DNA from: Treponema sp.
GTDB lineage: Bacteria > Spirochaetota > Spirochaetia > Treponematales > Breznakiellaceae
DNA: 5,092 nucleotides
Reading direction: 5' to 3'
Assembly (NCBI GenBank): GCA_031254385.1
Contig: JAIRUO010000135.1
Coordinates: 1-5,092, forward strand
Below the pieces are notes generated by a model, which saw only the letters and a program-made list of their open reading frames with translations, was not told the origin of the DNA and did no database searches. The stretch's first letter is position 1. Each line of letters opens with the position of its first letter. This document shows, piece after piece, positions 1 to 5,092 of the stretch. A program made the position numbers and the translations under genes.

Positions 1-549
1 AAATGCGAGGCCGACAAGTCCGCAACAATAGTTTACGGCACCGAAGAAAGTTACGGCTATCTTGTAGAAAATGAGGTGAGGGACAAGGACGGCGTTTCCG
101 CAGCGGCCATGACCGCAGAAATGACCTTATACTGGCGCAGCAAGGGCAAGAGCCTGTTGGACAGGCTGGACGAGCTTTACGGCATTTGCGGTTATTGGCA
201 GGAAATGGGAATCTCCAAATACTTCCAGGGGTCCGAAGGCCCGGCAATAATGAAGGGCATAATGGAAGAATACCGGAAGAATCCCCCAAAGACTTTGGGC
301 GGCATCGAAATAAGCAAAGTCCGGGATTTGGAACACGGCGCGGAAGGACTGCCTCCAAGCGATGTGCTTCAGTTCTTCCTTAAAGACGGCACAGTCGTAA
401 GCGCTCGTCCCAGCGGCACAGAACCCAAGATTAAGTTCTATGCGTCCTGCTGCTCGGAAACAGGCGCAGGGCTCTCCGCCGCAAAAGCCGAAGCTGGCCG
501 CAAACTTGAAGCTATCAAGAGGGACATAAGGGCGGTGATTGGGGAGTAG
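1..549 (+). CDS. Phosphoglucomutase/phosphomannomutase family protein, C-terminal part
   Basis: This is the last 182 residues of an alpha-D-phosphohexomutase, open at the left edge of the window; the family is usually about 550-600 residues, so roughly two thirds lies upstream. Such enzymes interconvert hexose 1- and 6-phosphates in the cytoplasm through a phosphoserine, supplying sugar phosphates for glycolysis or cell-envelope sugars. Two family motifs are visible. The sugar-binding loop GTEESYGY is at codons 13-20, followed by VRDKDGV. The phosphate-binding loop RPSGTEPK is at codons 136-143 (406-429), in the C-terminal domain. The catalytic serine and metal-binding loop are outside the window. 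GTEESYG, rather than the GEESG of classical PMM/PGM, resembles the longer PgcA-like phosphoglucomutases of Firmicutes and spirochetes. The choice between glucose and mannose substrate cannot be made here. The DNA is clearly richer in GC than the genes that follow, and the stop TAG is 49 bases before the next gene. Confidence 0.93.
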   Translation, partial: KCEADKSATIVYGTEESYGYLVENEVRDKDGVSAAAMTAEMTLYWRSKGKSLLDRLDELYGICGYWQEMGISKYFQGSEGPAIMKGIMEEYRKNPPKTLGGIEISKVRDLEHGAEGLPPSDVLQFFLKDGTVVSARPSGTEPKIKFYASCCSETGAGLSAAKAEAGRKLEAIKRDIRAVIGE

Positions 550-598: not shown

Positions 599-1102
599 AT
601 GGGTAATGAGAAAAGCGTTGTTATTACTGTATATGGCCACAGTAAGCTTATTGATAAAATCGCAGTAAGCCTGTTTGATGAACCAGAGAGCCTTAATAAT
701 GATGGTTCAAACGCAAAAATATATTGTGATAATATAAACAGCCTTGAATTACAGGGAGACGCATGGGTTTCTGCTCAAATTGTCACAAACAATAATACTC
801 AATACTCAATGGAAATGTTTTACCCGTTGGATTTTAATTTTCTGCTAAAATTAAATGACCGGGCCATTCAGAGAGTTATGCGGGATCTTGATTCTCAGGA
901 ATTGGCAAAAGCTCTCAAAGGTGCGGACACGGAAGTTCAGGATAAGATTTTCCAGAATATGTCAAACCGCGCTGCGACCATGCTCATGGAAGATATGGAA
1001 TATATGGGTACGATACGGTCAAAAGATATTAGAGAAGCACAGGAAAACGTGTTAAACATAGTCCGTCATTTAGAGCAAACTGGCGAAATTGTTATACCGT
1101 AG
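599..1102 (+). CDS. Stand-alone FliG C-terminal (torque) domain protein
   Basis: This 167-residue soluble protein is recognisable only in its second half. Residues 78-166 match the FliG C-terminal domain end to end: LNDRAIQRVMRDLDS, ALKGAD, NMSNRAATML, then AQENVLNIVRHLEQTGEIVI. In flagella this domain sits on the C-ring and takes torque from the MotA loop. The E. coli FliG charged residues K264, R281, D288, D289 and R297 correspond without gaps to K107, R124, E131, D132 and R140 here. The usual GPVR motif is GTIR (P to T). A true FliG is about 335-345 residues; its N-terminal MS-ring-binding domain and middle domain are absent, replaced by about 77 residues I do not recognise. AGGAG (586-590) lies eight bases before the ATG, which supports the start and argues against a simple truncation. 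The next gene starts 17 bases downstream, suggesting an operon with the two MotA-loop genes. Domain assignment is strong; a motor role is inference. Confidence 0.88.
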   Translation: MGNEKSVVITVYGHSKLIDKIAVSLFDEPESLNNDGSNAKIYCDNINSLELQGDAWVSAQIVTNNNTQYSMEMFYPLDFNFLLKLNDRAIQRVMRDLDSQELAKALKGADTEVQDKIFQNMSNRAATMLMEDMEYMGTIRSKDIREAQENVLNIVRHLEQTGEIVIP

Positions 1103-1119
1103 TCAAAAGGAGTAACCAA

Positions 1120-1596
1120 ATGACCCATAATGAATTTGTAAAAAAATATACTGAAATTGCATGGTGTACCCTGCAATGCTCTATGAAAGCCAGAAAAGAG
1201 GGCTTACTGGCATTGGAAGAAGAATTGGAAGATATTGATGAATGGATATTTAAAATGGGATTACGCCTTGTTATTGACGGGACTGATCCAAAATTTATTG
1301 AAAAAATTCTTTCAAACAAAATAAAACAGGAAAAAGATGAATATATGGTAATATTAAAAACTATTCAAAAAGAGGCAGCTCTTATGATTCAGGAGGGGTC
1401 AAATCCCAGATTGATTTATTACGTGATGAATTCTTATACCGACATAACATATAAGGAGGATGAGGTACTAAAAAAGCTGGAAAAAGCTATGCCGGAGGTC
1501 ATGGTAAGAATAGTCGGTCTGCAAGATGGGGTACGAAGAAAGTCGGAAAAAACTAAACAACAAGAGATAGACTTAGAAGAATTGGAATTGGAATAG
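1120..1596 (+). CDS. MotA cytoplasmic-loop-like protein, first copy (no membrane segments)
   Basis: This 158-residue protein resembles the cytoplasmic loop between TM2 and TM3 of the flagellar stator protein MotA. The clearest match is KARKEGLLALEEELED followed by GLRLVIDGTDPKFIEKIL, a hallmark of non-enteric MotA proteins. R25 and E33 have the eight-residue spacing of E. coli MotA R90 and E98, the two residues that contact FliG. MotA is normally 260-295 residues with four membrane helices. Here the protein begins about where TM2 would end, has no hydrophobic segment, and lacks TM3/TM4 with their conserved prolines, so it cannot conduct ions by itself. After the loop come IQKEAALMIQEGSNPRLI and a charged tail (about residues 115-158) not present in the next gene. 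AAGGAG (1107-1112) is seven bases before the ATG. The start is also supported by the second copy, which begins with the same MTxxEFxxKYxE pattern. A binding partner in the preceding FliG-like protein is an inference. Confidence 0.83.
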   Translation: MTHNEFVKKYTEIAWCTLQCSMKARKEGLLALEEELEDIDEWIFKMGLRLVIDGTDPKFIEKILSNKIKQEKDEYMVILKTIQKEAALMIQEGSNPRLIYYVMNSYTDITYKEDEVLKKLEKAMPEVMVRIVGLQDGVRRKSEKTKQQEIDLEELELE

Positions 1597-1610
1597 AAAG
1601 GAACTACAGA

Positions 1611-1988
1611 ATGACACGGAAAGAATTTTTCAATAAATATGATGAATTTGTGTCTCTTGCCATGGCCTGTTCTGAGAAAGCCAGAAGAGAAGGCTTCTTG
1701 GCATTGGAAGAGGAATTAGATCTGGATAAAATCAATGAAAGGGATATATTTTATTTAGGATTATCTCTTGCCATTGACAGAGTCGATAAAGAAATAATTG
1801 AAAAAATACTTTCAAACATTGTGAAACAGGAAAGGGATGAATATATGCTTTTGTTAAAGGATATCCAAAAAGAAGCTGTTTTTTCGATTCATGAAGGCTT
1901 TAACCCAAGGTTATTGGCTACCTTATTGCTTTCTTATTTAACAAAAGAAGAAGCAGATGAGATTGTGAGGAGGATATTGAGAGATTAG
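1611..1988 (+). CDS. MotA cytoplasmic-loop-like protein, second copy
   Basis: This 125-residue protein is a diverged tandem paralog of the gene before it; alignment runs from the first residue to about residue 110. It keeps KARREGFLALEEEL, with R25 and E33 again at the spacing of E. coli MotA R90 and E98, and it shares IEKILSN, KQERDEYM, IQKEA and NPRLL with copy one. It has three extra residues after the first helix (LDLDKINERDIF) and has lost the DGTDP signature, reading IDRVDKE. It ends soon after the shared region, without the acidic tail of copy one. There is no membrane segment, so like its neighbour it corresponds only to the stator loop that faces the rotor. AAAGGA (1597-1602) lies eight bases before the ATG and the gap to copy one is 14 bases, so cotranscription is likely. 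The family match is weaker than for copy one taken alone, but the paralogy is clear. Confidence 0.8.
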   Translation: MTRKEFFNKYDEFVSLAMACSEKARREGFLALEEELDLDKINERDIFYLGLSLAIDRVDKEIIEKILSNIVKQERDEYMLLLKDIQKEAVFSIHEGFNPRLLATLLLSYLTKEEADEIVRRILRD

Positions 1989-2028: not shown

Positions 2029-2246
2029 TCACTGCACCCCGCAAGACTTGCATTTTTTGGTATAAATGCCACTCATCTGCTCGCTGCAATAAATACATAA
2101 GCCTTGTTTCATACGCATACGCCGTTCTTCCGTAAATGGACCAATGTCACCCCAACCGCTGGTGTTGCATTGGTTATTCTTGATCTTGGTTAAAACCTTT
2201 TTTGCAGTATCGCTACATTGCCACAGTCATTACAATACTGCGACAC
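2029..2246 (-). pseudogene. Small zinc-ribbon protein gene with a frameshift, overlapping the kinase stop
   Basis: A GTG at 2246-2244 overlaps the kinase stop (TAGTG) and opens MSQYCNDCGN, a typical zinc-ribbon beginning, but this frame stops after 18 codons at 2190. The neighbouring frame then continues from the same region to a stop at 2029-2031. It carries GWGDIGPFTEERRMRMKQG and a second cysteine cluster, CIYC and CKSCGVQ. One added base, most simply in the six-A run at 2198-2203, joins the two into a 72-residue protein. Its cysteine pairs would be C5/C8, C51/C54 and C66/C69, with C27 extra. Zinc ribbons of this kind bind a structural zinc ion; no specific function can be given. AAGGAG inside the kinase end (2261-2266) is a possible but distant ribosome site. 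The break may be a real mutation, a programmed or phase-variable shift, or a homopolymer sequencing error. Part of the sequence also matches the kinase gene (see the repeat entries). Confidence 0.55.
2173..2214 (-). repeat. 42-base segment shared with the kinase gene (zinc-ribbon copy)
   Basis: Read in the frame of the zinc-ribbon C-terminus, this segment gives SDTAKKVLTKIKNN, identical to the kinase stretch at 11 of 14 residues. Similarity stops abruptly on both sides: the flanks encode cysteine-containing zinc-ribbon sequence here and kinase-domain sequence in the other copy. That fits a short recombination or gene-conversion patch, or a common exchange point between paralogs, better than independent origin. 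Confidence 0.72.
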
Positions 2247-4780
2247 TAGTATATATCCCCACTCCTTTTTTTTAGAATATAAACTATGATGTATGATGTC
2301 AAACTGCTAACACCAGCCACAACAACCATAACTGATACTGCAACACTAGCGCCTTCTAGCATAGATAAACCAATACAATTCAAAATAATAATCATAATTA
2401 GGAACACTATTCGCGGCGTTGAATTCCTATCAAGATCGAACAAACCTAAAGTCATAGCTAAGGATGGAAAAATAAATAAAGCTGCACAAACAAATGTAGA
2501 AATTATGTCAAAATAATCATCAGGTACATTTATGTGAACGGCAACAAACATAACAACGATAAGCACTGCAAAAAACCCAGGAAATATTAAAAACACAGGA
2601 AATGTACTGAATTTTAAAAAAAATTCATGCAAATTCTTTCGCCGTTGTTCTGCTTTTTTTTCTTTTTTCTCATGCTTCGTACTGCGTTCCAGTTCTTTCC
2701 GGTCTTTCTTTTCCTTAGCAGCACGTTGTGCAACAAGTTCATCATATTTTCTTCTATCCGCACCAACCTCAAGAAGCAGATTTACAAGATCGATATTATC
2801 TGGCACGTATGCATTGAGGAGAGGGTATGTGTCGTCGCCTGAATATTCGTTGACATCCGCCCCGAGTTTACATAGAATACGTATCAGGTTATTAACCGTA
2901 TCGGAACTTTGTTTGTTTTTTAATTTATTGAAGTTACGCACCACATAGTCGATGGGTGTTGTTCTTAAAGGATAATCCAGTATCGGCCCTTTAAGCGGCA
3001 AACCCTGCGCGACATATACCTCAAATAGATCGGAACGTCCCGGGTACTTATCTATCAAATTTTTTAATGCGGCCTCCCCGTTGTTTCCGGTAAGTTCCTT
3101 ATACGAAAGGAAGGGCAATAAGCCCAGCAGGAAAAACTGTTCTGTTACGTTAAGCTTGCCGAATTCATCGGTTGATTTGAAATAATCTCCGTATTGGGCG
3201 GAAAGCCACACCAGCAAAGGGGAATCTTTTTCCCTTACCGCTTTTTTGATAAGCTCTATCTGCGCGCCGTTTTTTTCCTGCGCGAGTTCGTCGGTACTAA
3301 GATAGCGTTTTGAGCCTATACCCACGCCGCCGTCGCTTTGCAATTTCAAATAAACAAGGGTAAGGGCGCGGTTGGGTGGGTATTGCTTAAAGTATTTGCA
3401 GAAAGAGTCCGCCACTTCCTTTCCATGCGAACCCTCGGTAACTGCAATGTAAACATACAAGCCAGCATTGGGTTTTTTAAGCTCATCCATGTAATGAGCC
3501 GAATCGTCCATTATCGCGTCCGCTATTTCTTCACTGCTCTTGCAGGCTTTTCCTTTCCGGCTTACAAAAGGTCTTTCAGGATCAAGCGTGTATATCGCCG
3601 CGGTAAGGCCGGCTTCACGGTCATTACCGTACAGTGATATGACATTTTTTATTTCGCTATATAGCGTAACATCGCCTGCTTCTTTAAGCGTGTCTGTTAT
3701 GAACTCATCGTAAAGACAGACTTTTCCTGCTTCTGGGTATTTTTCCATAAGGGCAGCCATCTCTTTATGGTTTGAAGCCAATTCATTGCCAAACTTTAAC
3801 GGCTTATAGACAGTACTGGCAACAGTAATTGGCTTTTTATTGTCAACCGCAAAGGTTTCACCTTTAAGCCACTTTTGTACGTGTACATTTCCCATGCGGT
3901 CTTTAGGCAGTGGATCGATAAGGCCCTGTATGAGTGCTTTGCAATCGTCCGGCATATCAACAGGAAAATCAACGTCCTTGTTTTGAATGCGGCGTTCTCG
4001 TGTGGTTGCTTTGATATCCTTAAAAGGTTGTTCGCCCAGCCAGAGTTCGTACATGGTTATTCCCAAGGCGAAATAATCGACAGCCGGGGTAACAATAACT
4101 TCCGTGCGTTTCCCTTTTATCGCCAGTTCGGGCGCTGCGTACAGATCTGTATTGCTGGCGATCACTTCGACTTCCTCACTATCGTCCTGCATAACGCTTG
4201 AAATGCCAAAATCGGCGAGAACAAGCGACGACCTTTTTGCATCTCTGAAAAAGACATTTTCTGGTTTTAAATCCTGATAAATAACTTTATAATATTCGTG
4301 AAGCTGCCGGAGACCTTCGTTTATCTGTTTTATTACAGCTTTCAATTTGGTATCTCGTATAGTACCGTTCTTCCTGATATATTCGCCGAGGGTGCCGCCT
4401 TCGGCGTACTCCATAATTTCAAAGTCCTGACCGTTATAACTGCCAAAGTCAAATATTCTAACAACCCTTTCCTTGGGGTTATCCCTGATTTTAGTTAAAA
4501 CATTTTTCGCAGTATCGCTGAGTGGCATATTCGGCTTGTAGTATTTCATAGCGTAAAATTGGCCGTCTATTTGAATTTTATAGATATCAGCCTCGCCGGA
4601 ATACATGCTAATAAGTTTTTCGATGACGCAGTTCTTGCCGTTTAAGACGATGGTCTGTCCGTCAGCAAAAATGGTACCTCCACTCGCCAGGCTTGTGCCT
4701 TGACTACCGCCCATGCGTGCGGTGCCAGCATCCATTCTGGCGGTACTGTCTGTGCTCATTCTAGCAGTGCTGTCGCTCAT
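2246..4780 (-). CDS. Membrane-anchored Ser/Thr protein kinase with ankyrin-like repeats
   Basis: This 844-residue protein has a bacterial Hanks-type kinase domain at about residues 50-305. The ATP-anchoring lysine is K79 (YAMKYY) and the hinge is EIMEYAEGGTL. The catalytic loop is Y168-Q-D170-L-K-P-E-N175, DFG is at 190-192, APE at 216-218, and the later DYFALGITMYELW is intact, so catalysis is expected. The glycine loop is degenerate (SMYSGEADIY) and HRD is YQD, so it lacks the arginine of RD kinases. Residues 1-23 hold three TARM motifs. Residues about 330-600 match nothing I recognise. Residues about 605-680 look like two or three ankyrin repeats (LCKLGADVNE, LLLEVGADRR). Residues 681-717 are a lysine/glutamate-rich linker. 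Four hydrophobic segments follow, near 727-750, 757-780, 790-808 and 812-836, so the kinase is probably cytoplasmic and tethered by its C-terminus, unlike PknB-type kinases with an extracellular sensor. The LRR gene ends 45 bases upstream, suggesting cotranscription. Substrates are unknown. Confidence 0.92.
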   Translation of the reverse strand: MSDSTARMSTDSTARMDAGTARMGGSQGTSLASGGTIFADGQTIVLNGKNCVIEKLISMYSGEADIYKIQIDGQFYAMKYYKPNMPLSDTAKNVLTKIRDNPKERVVRIFDFGSYNGQDFEIMEYAEGGTLGEYIRKNGTIRDTKLKAVIKQINEGLRQLHEYYKVIYQDLKPENVFFRDAKRSSLVLADFGISSVMQDDSEEVEVIASNTDLYAAPELAIKGKRTEVIVTPAVDYFALGITMYELWLGEQPFKDIKATTRERRIQNKDVDFPVDMPDDCKALIQGLIDPLPKDRMGNVHVQKWLKGETFAVDNKKPITVASTVYKPLKFGNELASNHKEMAALMEKYPEAGKVCLYDEFITDTLKEAGDVTLYSEIKNVISLYGNDREAGLTAAIYTLDPERPFVSRKGKACKSSEEIADAIMDDSAHYMDELKKPNAGLYVYIAVTEGSHGKEVADSFCKYFKQYPPNRALTLVYLKLQSDGGVGIGSKRYLSTDELAQEKNGAQIELIKKAVREKDSPLLVWLSAQYGDYFKSTDEFGKLNVTEQFFLLGLLPFLSYKELTGNNGEAALKNLIDKYPGRSDLFEVYVAQGLPLKGPILDYPLRTTPIDYVVRNFNKLKNKQSSDTVNNLIRILCKLGADVNEYSGDDTYPLLNAYVPDNIDLVNLLLEVGADRRKYDELVAQRAAKEKKDRKELERSTKHEKKEKKAEQRRKNLHEFFLKFSTFPVFLIFPGFFAVLIVVMFVAVHINVPDDYFDIISTFVCAALFIFPSLAMTLGLFDLDRNSTPRIVFLIMIIILNCIGLSMLEGASVAVSVMVVVAGVSSLTSYIIVYILKKRSGDIY
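4478..4519 (-). repeat. 42-base segment shared with the zinc-ribbon gene (kinase copy)
   Basis: This segment encodes kinase residues 88-101, SDTAKNVLTKIRDN, in the region of helix C between the ATP-binding lysine and the hinge. It matches 2173-2214 at 36 of 42 bases by hand alignment, in the same orientation and the same reading frame. Confidence 0.75.
4712..4771 (-). repeat. Three TARM motifs at the kinase N-terminus
   Basis: Residues 4-8, 12-16 and 19-23 of the kinase read STARM, STARM and GTARM. The motifs are encoded by different codons (ACT GCT AGA ATG, ACC GCC AGA ATG, ACC GCA CGC ATG), so the amino-acid pattern is preserved while the DNA is not a fresh duplication. The threonines sit in a short, probably unstructured leader before the kinase domain. 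This suggests autophosphorylation sites or a docking tag, by inference only. Confidence 0.8.
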
Positions 4781-4825: not shown

Positions 4826-5092
4826 TTACCTTCGCGTCCATGTCGTACTGCCGGTATTCGGGCGCGTATAAGTCCCCGCCCTCATGCCATTGTTGGCATA
4901 GGCGGAATTAAACCCGGTACTCTGCCCCAGTATGCCATAGTTCCCATCCGCATCTCCGAGTTCTACATTTGCTCCCAATCTAATGCTTGTTACCGGGTTA
5001 CCGGAGAAGGCGTTAACTCCAATAGAGGTAACATTGTTGGGAATAACAATAGTAGATAATCTGTTGTTTCTGAACGCCCCATTCTCAATGGT
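4826..5092 (-). CDS. BspA-type leucine-rich-repeat protein, C-terminal end
   Basis: These are the last 88 residues of a protein entering from the right edge. They hold about one and a half LRR_5 (BspA-like) repeats: IENGAFRNNRLSTIVIPNN, VTSIGVNAFSGNPVTSIRLG. A C-terminal cap follows, with ANVELGDADGNYGILGQ and FNSAYANNGMRAGTYTRP, ending STTWTRR. Repeats with the IP.sVTSIG..AF pattern are typical of surface or secreted proteins of host-associated bacteria, including many in treponemes, and several are adhesins. The signal peptide and number of repeats lie outside the window, so location and length are unknown. The stop TAA is at 4826-4828 and the kinase starts 45 bases later on the same strand with no visible terminator between them. 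Confidence 0.87.
   Translation of the reverse strand, partial: TIENGAFRNNRLSTIVIPNNVTSIGVNAFSGNPVTSIRLGANVELGDADGNYGILGQSTGFNSAYANNGMRAGTYTRPNTGSTTWTRR

What the first reader, a model, noticed from the sequence alone, without database searches (positions are those of the whole stretch)
599..1988. Soluble rotor-stator interface cassette: FliG torque domain plus two MotA loops, with no membrane parts
Three consecutive, closely spaced genes encode only the two surfaces that touch each other in the flagellar motor. The known E. coli contact pairs (FliG R281 with MotA E98, FliG D289 with MotA R90) are all preserved: R124 and D132 in the FliG-like protein, E33 and R25 in both MotA-like proteins. 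All membrane helices and ring-binding domains are gone. Keeping the interface while losing the machine suggests selection for binding. Possible roles are a motor brake, clutch or decoy acting at the FliG-MotA contact as YcgR or EpsE do, or a reused protein-protein switch unrelated to swimming. I do not know of a described system of this composition.
Basis: partly seen in the sequence, partly recalled or inferred. Interest (0 to 1): 0.86.

Follow-up and report, generated by a model that had tools for sequence, protein, structure and literature searches.

The report
Membrane-free pieces of the flagellar motor
Some spirochaetes carry, beside their normal flagellar motor, small water-soluble proteins made of just the two motor surfaces that push on each other, often as neighbouring genes or one fused protein, and these may bind or tune the motor or may have been reused as a protein-to-protein connector.

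The parts
599..1102 (+). FliG-like gene, 167 aa: N domain plus FliG torque domain
599..829 (+). N-terminal domain, residues 1-77, strands 5-14, 17-27, 55-62 and helix 38-47; no Pfam family; found ahead of FliG_C in the 7 genomes (of 24) where it occurs
830..1099 (+). [not shown]
968..970 (+). codon of R124, equivalent of E. coli FliG R281
992..994 (+). codon of D132, equivalent of E. coli FliG D289
1108..1112 (+). AGGAG, likely ribosome-binding site of the first MotA-like gene
   Evidence: sequence
1120..1596 (+). first soluble MotA-like gene, 158 aa: MotA cytoplasmic loop (about residues 1-73) joined to MotA C-terminal tail (about 76-112); residues beyond about 120 are a low-confidence extension
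1192..1194 (+). codon of R25, equivalent of E. coli MotA R90
1216..1218 (+). codon of E33, equivalent of E. coli MotA E98
1597..1602 (+). AAAGGA, likely ribosome-binding site of the second MotA-like gene
   Evidence: sequence
1611..1988 (+). second soluble MotA-like gene, 125 aa, 54% identical to the first over 120 codons
1683..1709 (+). R25 to E33 stretch of the second MotA-like protein (MotA R90 and E98 equivalents)

Best explanation
SHOWN: spirochaetes of at least two orders encode a family of membrane-free proteins built from the MotA cytoplasmic domain (TM1-2 and TM3-4 absent, loop and tail joined) and the FliG torque domain, as neighbouring genes or as one chain; in the first order, where I checked, they come in addition to ordinary motor genes. 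INFERRED: the MotA-like and FliG-like parts bind each other as stator and rotor do, and each can also dock on the motor's own FliG torque helix or MotA loop. Being unable to anchor or carry ions, they compete with torque-generating contacts and act as a soluble clutch or brake. When paired or fused they mask each other, so a signal arriving through the attached part (CheY-P motif, TPR, LRR or DUF4116 repeats, or the unknown N domain in this window) would free the competing surface.
For: Fold and charged residues of both surfaces kept. MotA tail as well as loop kept, so the complete cytoplasmic domain is selected. Recurrent pairing: adjacent or fused in 14 of 21 decidable genomes (my tally over); 13 of the 120 proteins listed carry both domains. 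Purifying selection on the fused form of the second order, dN/dS about 0.04-0.06 with saturated dS. FliG-length ORF with FliG_C in 24 of 24 and MotA in 22 of 24 host genomes. FliM-type CheY-P motif in 14 of 283 family proteins, shuffled mean 0.18, several of the 14 being near copies. Unrelated proteins that act at this contact exist: YcgR and MotI (passages of PMC12713396).
Against: No binding or motility data. None of 20 neighbours scanned (17 from 9 loci of the first order, 3 from 2 loci of the second) has a flagellar Pfam family, and I saw no flagellar gene in the neighbour listings, read by eye from sequence starts. Without TM helices the MotA domain should not form the pentamer, so affinity for FliG may be low (inference). 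The fused clade members P0220, 0222, 0223, 0228, 0230 lost both R281 and E98, P0224 has K opposite T, while P0229 and P0236 are discordant; the separate proteins P0004 and P0012 lost R281 although the MotA-like protein on a contig of equal length keeps E98. MotA-like distances correlate with the N domain as well as (0.62 vs 0.58, 24 pairs) or better than (0.71 vs 0.59, 23 pairs) with the torque domain. Seven decidable genomes have soluble MotA without a neighbouring FliG_C. No motor check was made in the second order.
Confidence: 0.4

Rival explanations
1. The FliG-MotA contact was detached from swimming and reused as a general protein-protein connector (a dockerin-cohesin-like pair) that assembles repeat-rich cytoplasmic proteins; the motor is not its target.
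For: MotA-like and FliG_C domains are fused to LRR (L002, L113; MotA-like alone in L121), Sel1/TPR (L116) and DUF4116 (L113) repeats; some clusters also hold TPR, ankyrin, pentapeptide and zinc-ribbon proteins; no flagellar family among 20 neighbours scanned. Longer branches than motor FliG.
Against: Charged motor-contact residues are kept in most members; each of the 24 hosts has a FliG-length ORF; the CheY-P motif in some relatives points to the motility pathway. Binding untested.
Confidence: 0.33
2. The proteins are an extra structural or regulatory part of the spirochaete motor itself, e.g. stator or C-ring accessory subunits that add to, rather than compete with, the contact.
For: Same surfaces kept; hosts have motor genes; some relatives still hold FliG_M or FliG_N remnants (L114, L127, L131).
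Against: Patchy: at least 24 of 390 genomes of the order; no membrane or ring-binding part found in the window proteins.
Confidence: 0.1
3. Target-mimicking decoys that protect the host from something that attacks motor parts (phage protein, toxin).
For: Domains copied from house-keeping machines; one T. saccharophilum member also has a weak, sub-cut-off DnaN-like N-terminus; multi-copy, repeat-rich neighbourhoods in some genomes; a kinase with a sub-cut-off MAD6 hit lies next door in the window.
Against: No PADLOC hit at E 0.01 for the FliG-like and first MotA-like protein, and only two weak ones (E 0.0036 and 0.0074) for the second; no phage match for the first MotA-like protein. No attacker known.
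Confidence: 0.07
4. Neutral debris of duplicated fliG and motA genes.
For: The G299 copy has stops inside the aligned stretch; N-domain/MotA hybrid P0226.
Against: 92 relatives of the FliG-like protein over at least 82% of its length and 119 listed of the MotA-like one; both TM pairs missing with loop and tail kept; dN/dS about 0.05 in the fused form.
Confidence: 0.03

Closest known systems
MotA stator subunit (cytoplasmic, torque-generating interface domain)
   Different: No TM helices, hence no ion channel and presumably no MotB partner or pentamer
FliG, C-terminal torque domain
   Same: Fold and charged residues
   Different: FliG_N and FliG_M not found in the window protein; an unrelated N domain instead; 113.6 of the 226.7 bits needed for NCBIfam fliG
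YcgR, MotI (DgrA), EpsE motor brakes and clutches
   Same: Would act at the FliG-MotA contact; passages on YcgR and MotI read in PMC12713396, EpsE from the search listing of PMC3000366
   Different: YcgR bears PilZ and EpsE resembles a glycosyltransferase; they are not copies of the motor's own surfaces; no PilZ hit here
Spirochaete FliG1/FliG2 duplication
   Same: Extra FliG in a spirochaete, Borrelia (passage of PMC7225975)
   Different: Those are long FliG proteins; all 24 cassette hosts have a 346-368-aa FliG ORF and, as I read, 20 of 24 also a second FliG_C ORF of 373-455 aa (678 in one), which I take for FliG1
Zorya ZorA (MotA-like defence protein)
   Same: Non-flagellar use of a MotA relative (recalled; Zorya-type proteins named in passages of PMC12505986)
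   Different: ZorA is a membrane protein (recalled); no Zorya model among the PADLOC hits of the three cassette proteins

Membership tests
FliG torque domain (FliG_C) | Pfam FliG_C above gathering score | tested here: met
   108.9 vs 23.3 bits, residues 78-166
FliG torque domain (FliG_C) | charged torque-helix residues K264, R281, D288, D289, R297 | tested here: met
   K, R, E, D, R in the window protein
FliG rotor protein | FliG_N and FliG_M ring-binding domains | tested here: not met
   no FliG_N or FliG_M at E 1; NCBIfam fliG 113.6 of 226.7 bits
MotA stator subunit | four transmembrane helices | tested here: not met
   by alignment, not by a TM predictor: 81 of 85 MotA ORFs match loop and tail separately, median 80 residues between; the soluble protein starts after TM2 and lacks that stretch; fold aligns 8..119 to 75..259 of MotA over 111 residues
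MotA stator subunit | cytoplasmic torque interface with R90 and E98 | tested here: met
MotA stator subunit | whole-protein NCBIfam cut-off | tested here: not met
   54.7 and 35.7 of 340 bits
YcgR/MotI/EpsE brake or clutch | binds FliG or MotA and lowers rotation | not testable with these tools
   needs binding and motility assays
YcgR/MotI | PilZ c-di-GMP domain | tested here: not met
   no PilZ hit at E 1 in the three window proteins
FliM-type CheY-P target | LSQxEIDALL peptide | tested here: not met
   no window ORF among the motif hits; 14 of 283 relatives have a relaxed form
Zorya | ZorA/ZorB family hit | tested here: not met
   no Zorya model among PADLOC hits at E 0.01 for the three cassette proteins

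The most novel reading that the evidence does not exclude
Spirochaetes took the rotor-stator contact out of the membrane and made it a modular, signal-gated protein-protein switch: soluble stator and rotor surfaces, in pairs or in one self-masking chain, plugged into CheY-P-binding peptides and LRR, TPR, Sel1 or DUF4116 scaffolds, used to disengage the motor or to build other complexes on command.
Probability: 0.35. Interest if true: 0.9.

Novelty: new variant of a known kind. Interest (0 to 1): 0.76.

Why it matters
The FliG-MotA contact is the point where torque is made, and the control proteins I know to act there have unrelated folds. A family built from the contact's own two halves, freed of the membrane, would give a soluble two-protein system to measure that contact directly (affinity, structure, effect of each charge), which the membrane-bound motor makes hard. 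It would also show evolution removing transmembrane helices from an ion-channel subunit while keeping its cytoplasmic fold, and may explain how some spirochaetes with periplasmic flagella tune or park their motors.

Tried and rejected

Rows dropped: for the motif count I left out motor FliG, FliG1, real MotA and duplicate loci; for pairs on contig lengths 1237 and 1019, and for 1418 only the first MotA-like protein was kept; one search also drops length 807. In the 14-of-21 tally three genomes whose soluble MotA lies at a contig edge (G248, G262, G289) are set aside; the unpaired seven are G011, G115, G215 (FliG_C on the same contig about 11 kb away), G220, G224, G279, G299.

Full report
WHAT IS IN THE WINDOW. 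The window is a 5092-base contig with no host genome held. Left to right: the end of a phosphoglucomutase/phosphomannomutase gene, the three-gene cassette 599-1988 on the + strand, a convergent 844-aa Ser/Thr kinase gene, and the edge of a BspA-type LRR_5 gene. The cassette genes are 17 and 14 bases apart and each has a purine-rich site at the right distance, so one transcript is likely (inference; the promoter and terminator scan is little better than shuffles).

THE CONTACT. The pairs R90 with D288-D289 and E98 with R281 are in print (PMC12505986 and PMC4030992, passages). In the FliG-like family of 93: K264 88, R281 80, acid at 288 in 93, D289 88, R297 66. In 103 MotA-like: R90 94, E98 98.

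A FAMILY, NOT AN ACCIDENT. In 390 genomes of one spirochaete order I read 24 with a soluble-type match, i.e. nearly full length or cut by a contig end, in the listing; the other listed hits were loop-only matches, mostly in ORFs of about 260 aa, i.e. ordinary MotA. The listing was cut, so 24 is a lower bound. Layouts: N domain-FliG_C next to MotA-like (window, L001, L117, L119, L120, L124, L160); MotA-FliG_C fusions (L118, L127, L130, L171, the last with weak MotA hits); three MotA domains plus FliG_C (L114); MotA plus FliG_M stretches plus FliG_C (L114); FliG_C-LRR-MotA-MotA (L002, 633 aa; L113, 816 aa); LRR-MotA-MotA (L121); MotA-Sel1-TPR (L116); MotA-DUF4116 (L113); clusters of truncated FliG with soluble MotA (L128, L131, L170). 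Thirteen of the 120 proteins listed carry both domains. By my tally a soluble MotA lies next to, or in one chain with, a non-motor FliG_C in 14 of 24 genomes; in 7 it does not, and in 3 a contig edge hides the answer. The N domain occurs in 7 of these 24 genomes, each time before FliG_C, and in 6 of the 7 beside the MotA-like gene (with 21 and 60).

SECOND ORDER AND SELECTION. A scan of 392 genomes of the phylum found 8 at E 1e-15. Three of them, G580, G549 and G482, belong to another order (3 of 30 genomes held; the other 9 hits there match only the loop) and share a MotA-FliG_C protein of about 245 aa, 79 and 83% identical to G580's, keeping R90, E98, R281, E at 288 and D289 (read from the sequences). 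dN/dS is 0.043 and 0.056 for the two pairs with a finite overall dS; synonymous sites are saturated (dS about 2), so the exact value is soft, but the direction is not. For the window's own type dN/dS is higher: 0.37 between the two MotA-like copies, and 0.15-0.26 between FliG-like genes where dS is finite, again with high dS.

HOSTS HAVE A MOTOR. All 24 genomes of the first order hold an ORF of 346-368 aa with FliG_C at a motor-like score, and 22 of 24 a MotA match at 1e-20, one of them (G362) on a contig edge; G002 and G248 gave none. The three genomes of the second order were not checked.

CheY-P MOTIF. The peptide LSQxEIDALL is the CheY-P site of FliM and FliY (passages of PMC6700473, PMC9126983, PMC7595845). 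Matches to a relaxed form occur in 14 of 283 family proteins, against a shuffled mean of 0.18 and maximum of 2; several of the 14 are near copies of T. saccharophilum-type proteins. Three proteins of the same loci without either domain also match. The window proteins do not.

RESULTS AGAINST. MotA-like and FliG-like genes are co-inherited, but the MotA-like distances follow the N domain as well as the torque domain (0.62 and 0.58 in 24 presumed pairs) or better (0.71 and 0.59 after dropping one pair that cannot share its contig). In one fused clade R281 and E98 are both changed in six proteins (P0220, 0222, 0223, 0228, 0230 with N opposite T, S, N, T, T; P0224 with K opposite T), with P0229 (N, E) and P0236 (H, E) discordant; in separate genes P0004 and P0012 lost R281 alone. 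Some multi-domain relatives (L113, L114) lost further contact residues. Thus the charge pair is usual, not obligatory. Of 20 neighbouring proteins scanned, 15 have a Pfam family, none of them flagellar, and 5 have none; the remaining neighbours were only looked at by eye.

HOW IT MOST LIKELY WORKS. Shown: two interacting motor surfaces, kept in fold and mostly in charge, freed from membrane and ring, repeatedly encoded together. Inferred: they bind each other and compete at the motor's own contact, acting as a clutch or brake gated through attached modules. The main rival, nearly as likely, is that the contact was reused as a connector for repeat-protein assemblies. I give 0.40 and 0.33. Working like a clutch and belonging to a clutch family are separate: the PilZ and glycosyltransferase-like clutches are of other families.

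NOVELTY. Six searches of open papers found no description; this does not exclude subscription journals. The domains are known; their freeing from the membrane protein, their pairing and their fusions are, as far as I could find, not described. I rate it a new variant of a known kind because function is inferred.

Noticed in passing
window 2246-4780 (-): 844-aa Ser/Thr kinase convergent with the cassette; ankyrin-like stretch in its last third and C-terminal hydrophobic helices (by eye); best PADLOC hit is the MAD6 kinase model (1.6e-34), but NCBIfam MAD6 scores 81 of 460 bits, so probably a generic kinase.
   Followed up: partly
window 4826-5092 (-): End of a BspA-type LRR_5 protein; LRR_5 genes also flank soluble MotA genes in L132.
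   Followed up: no
L132 3085-4023 (-): T. saccharophilum-type protein with a weak, sub-cut-off DnaN (sliding clamp) N-terminus, a soluble MotA domain and an ISQDEIDALL peptide at the C-terminus.
   Followed up: partly
L132 7104-7946 and 9827-10681 (-): Two similar-looking 280- and 284-aa proteins with a FliM-like EIDSLL/EIDQLL motif near the N-terminus; the one scanned has no family hit.
   Followed up: no
P0226: Hybrid: the cassette's N domain runs straight into the second half of the MotA-like domain, losing both the torque bundle and the R90-E98 helix; looks like a deletion fusing the two neighbouring genes.
   Followed up: no
L168 1937-3301 (-): FliG-like 455-aa ORF with a second, degenerate FliG_C (E 0.0006) at its end, contact residues lost there.
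   Followed up: no
L002, L113, L121: DUF4116 repeat proteins (PF13475; 15 stretches in one 955-aa protein of L002) occur beside or in one chain with the MotA/FliG modules; no paper in the library holds both DUF4116 and Treponema.
   Followed up: no
L163 / G299:C156: A soluble MotA copy with two stop codons inside the aligned stretch, probably truncated or decaying.
   Followed up: no
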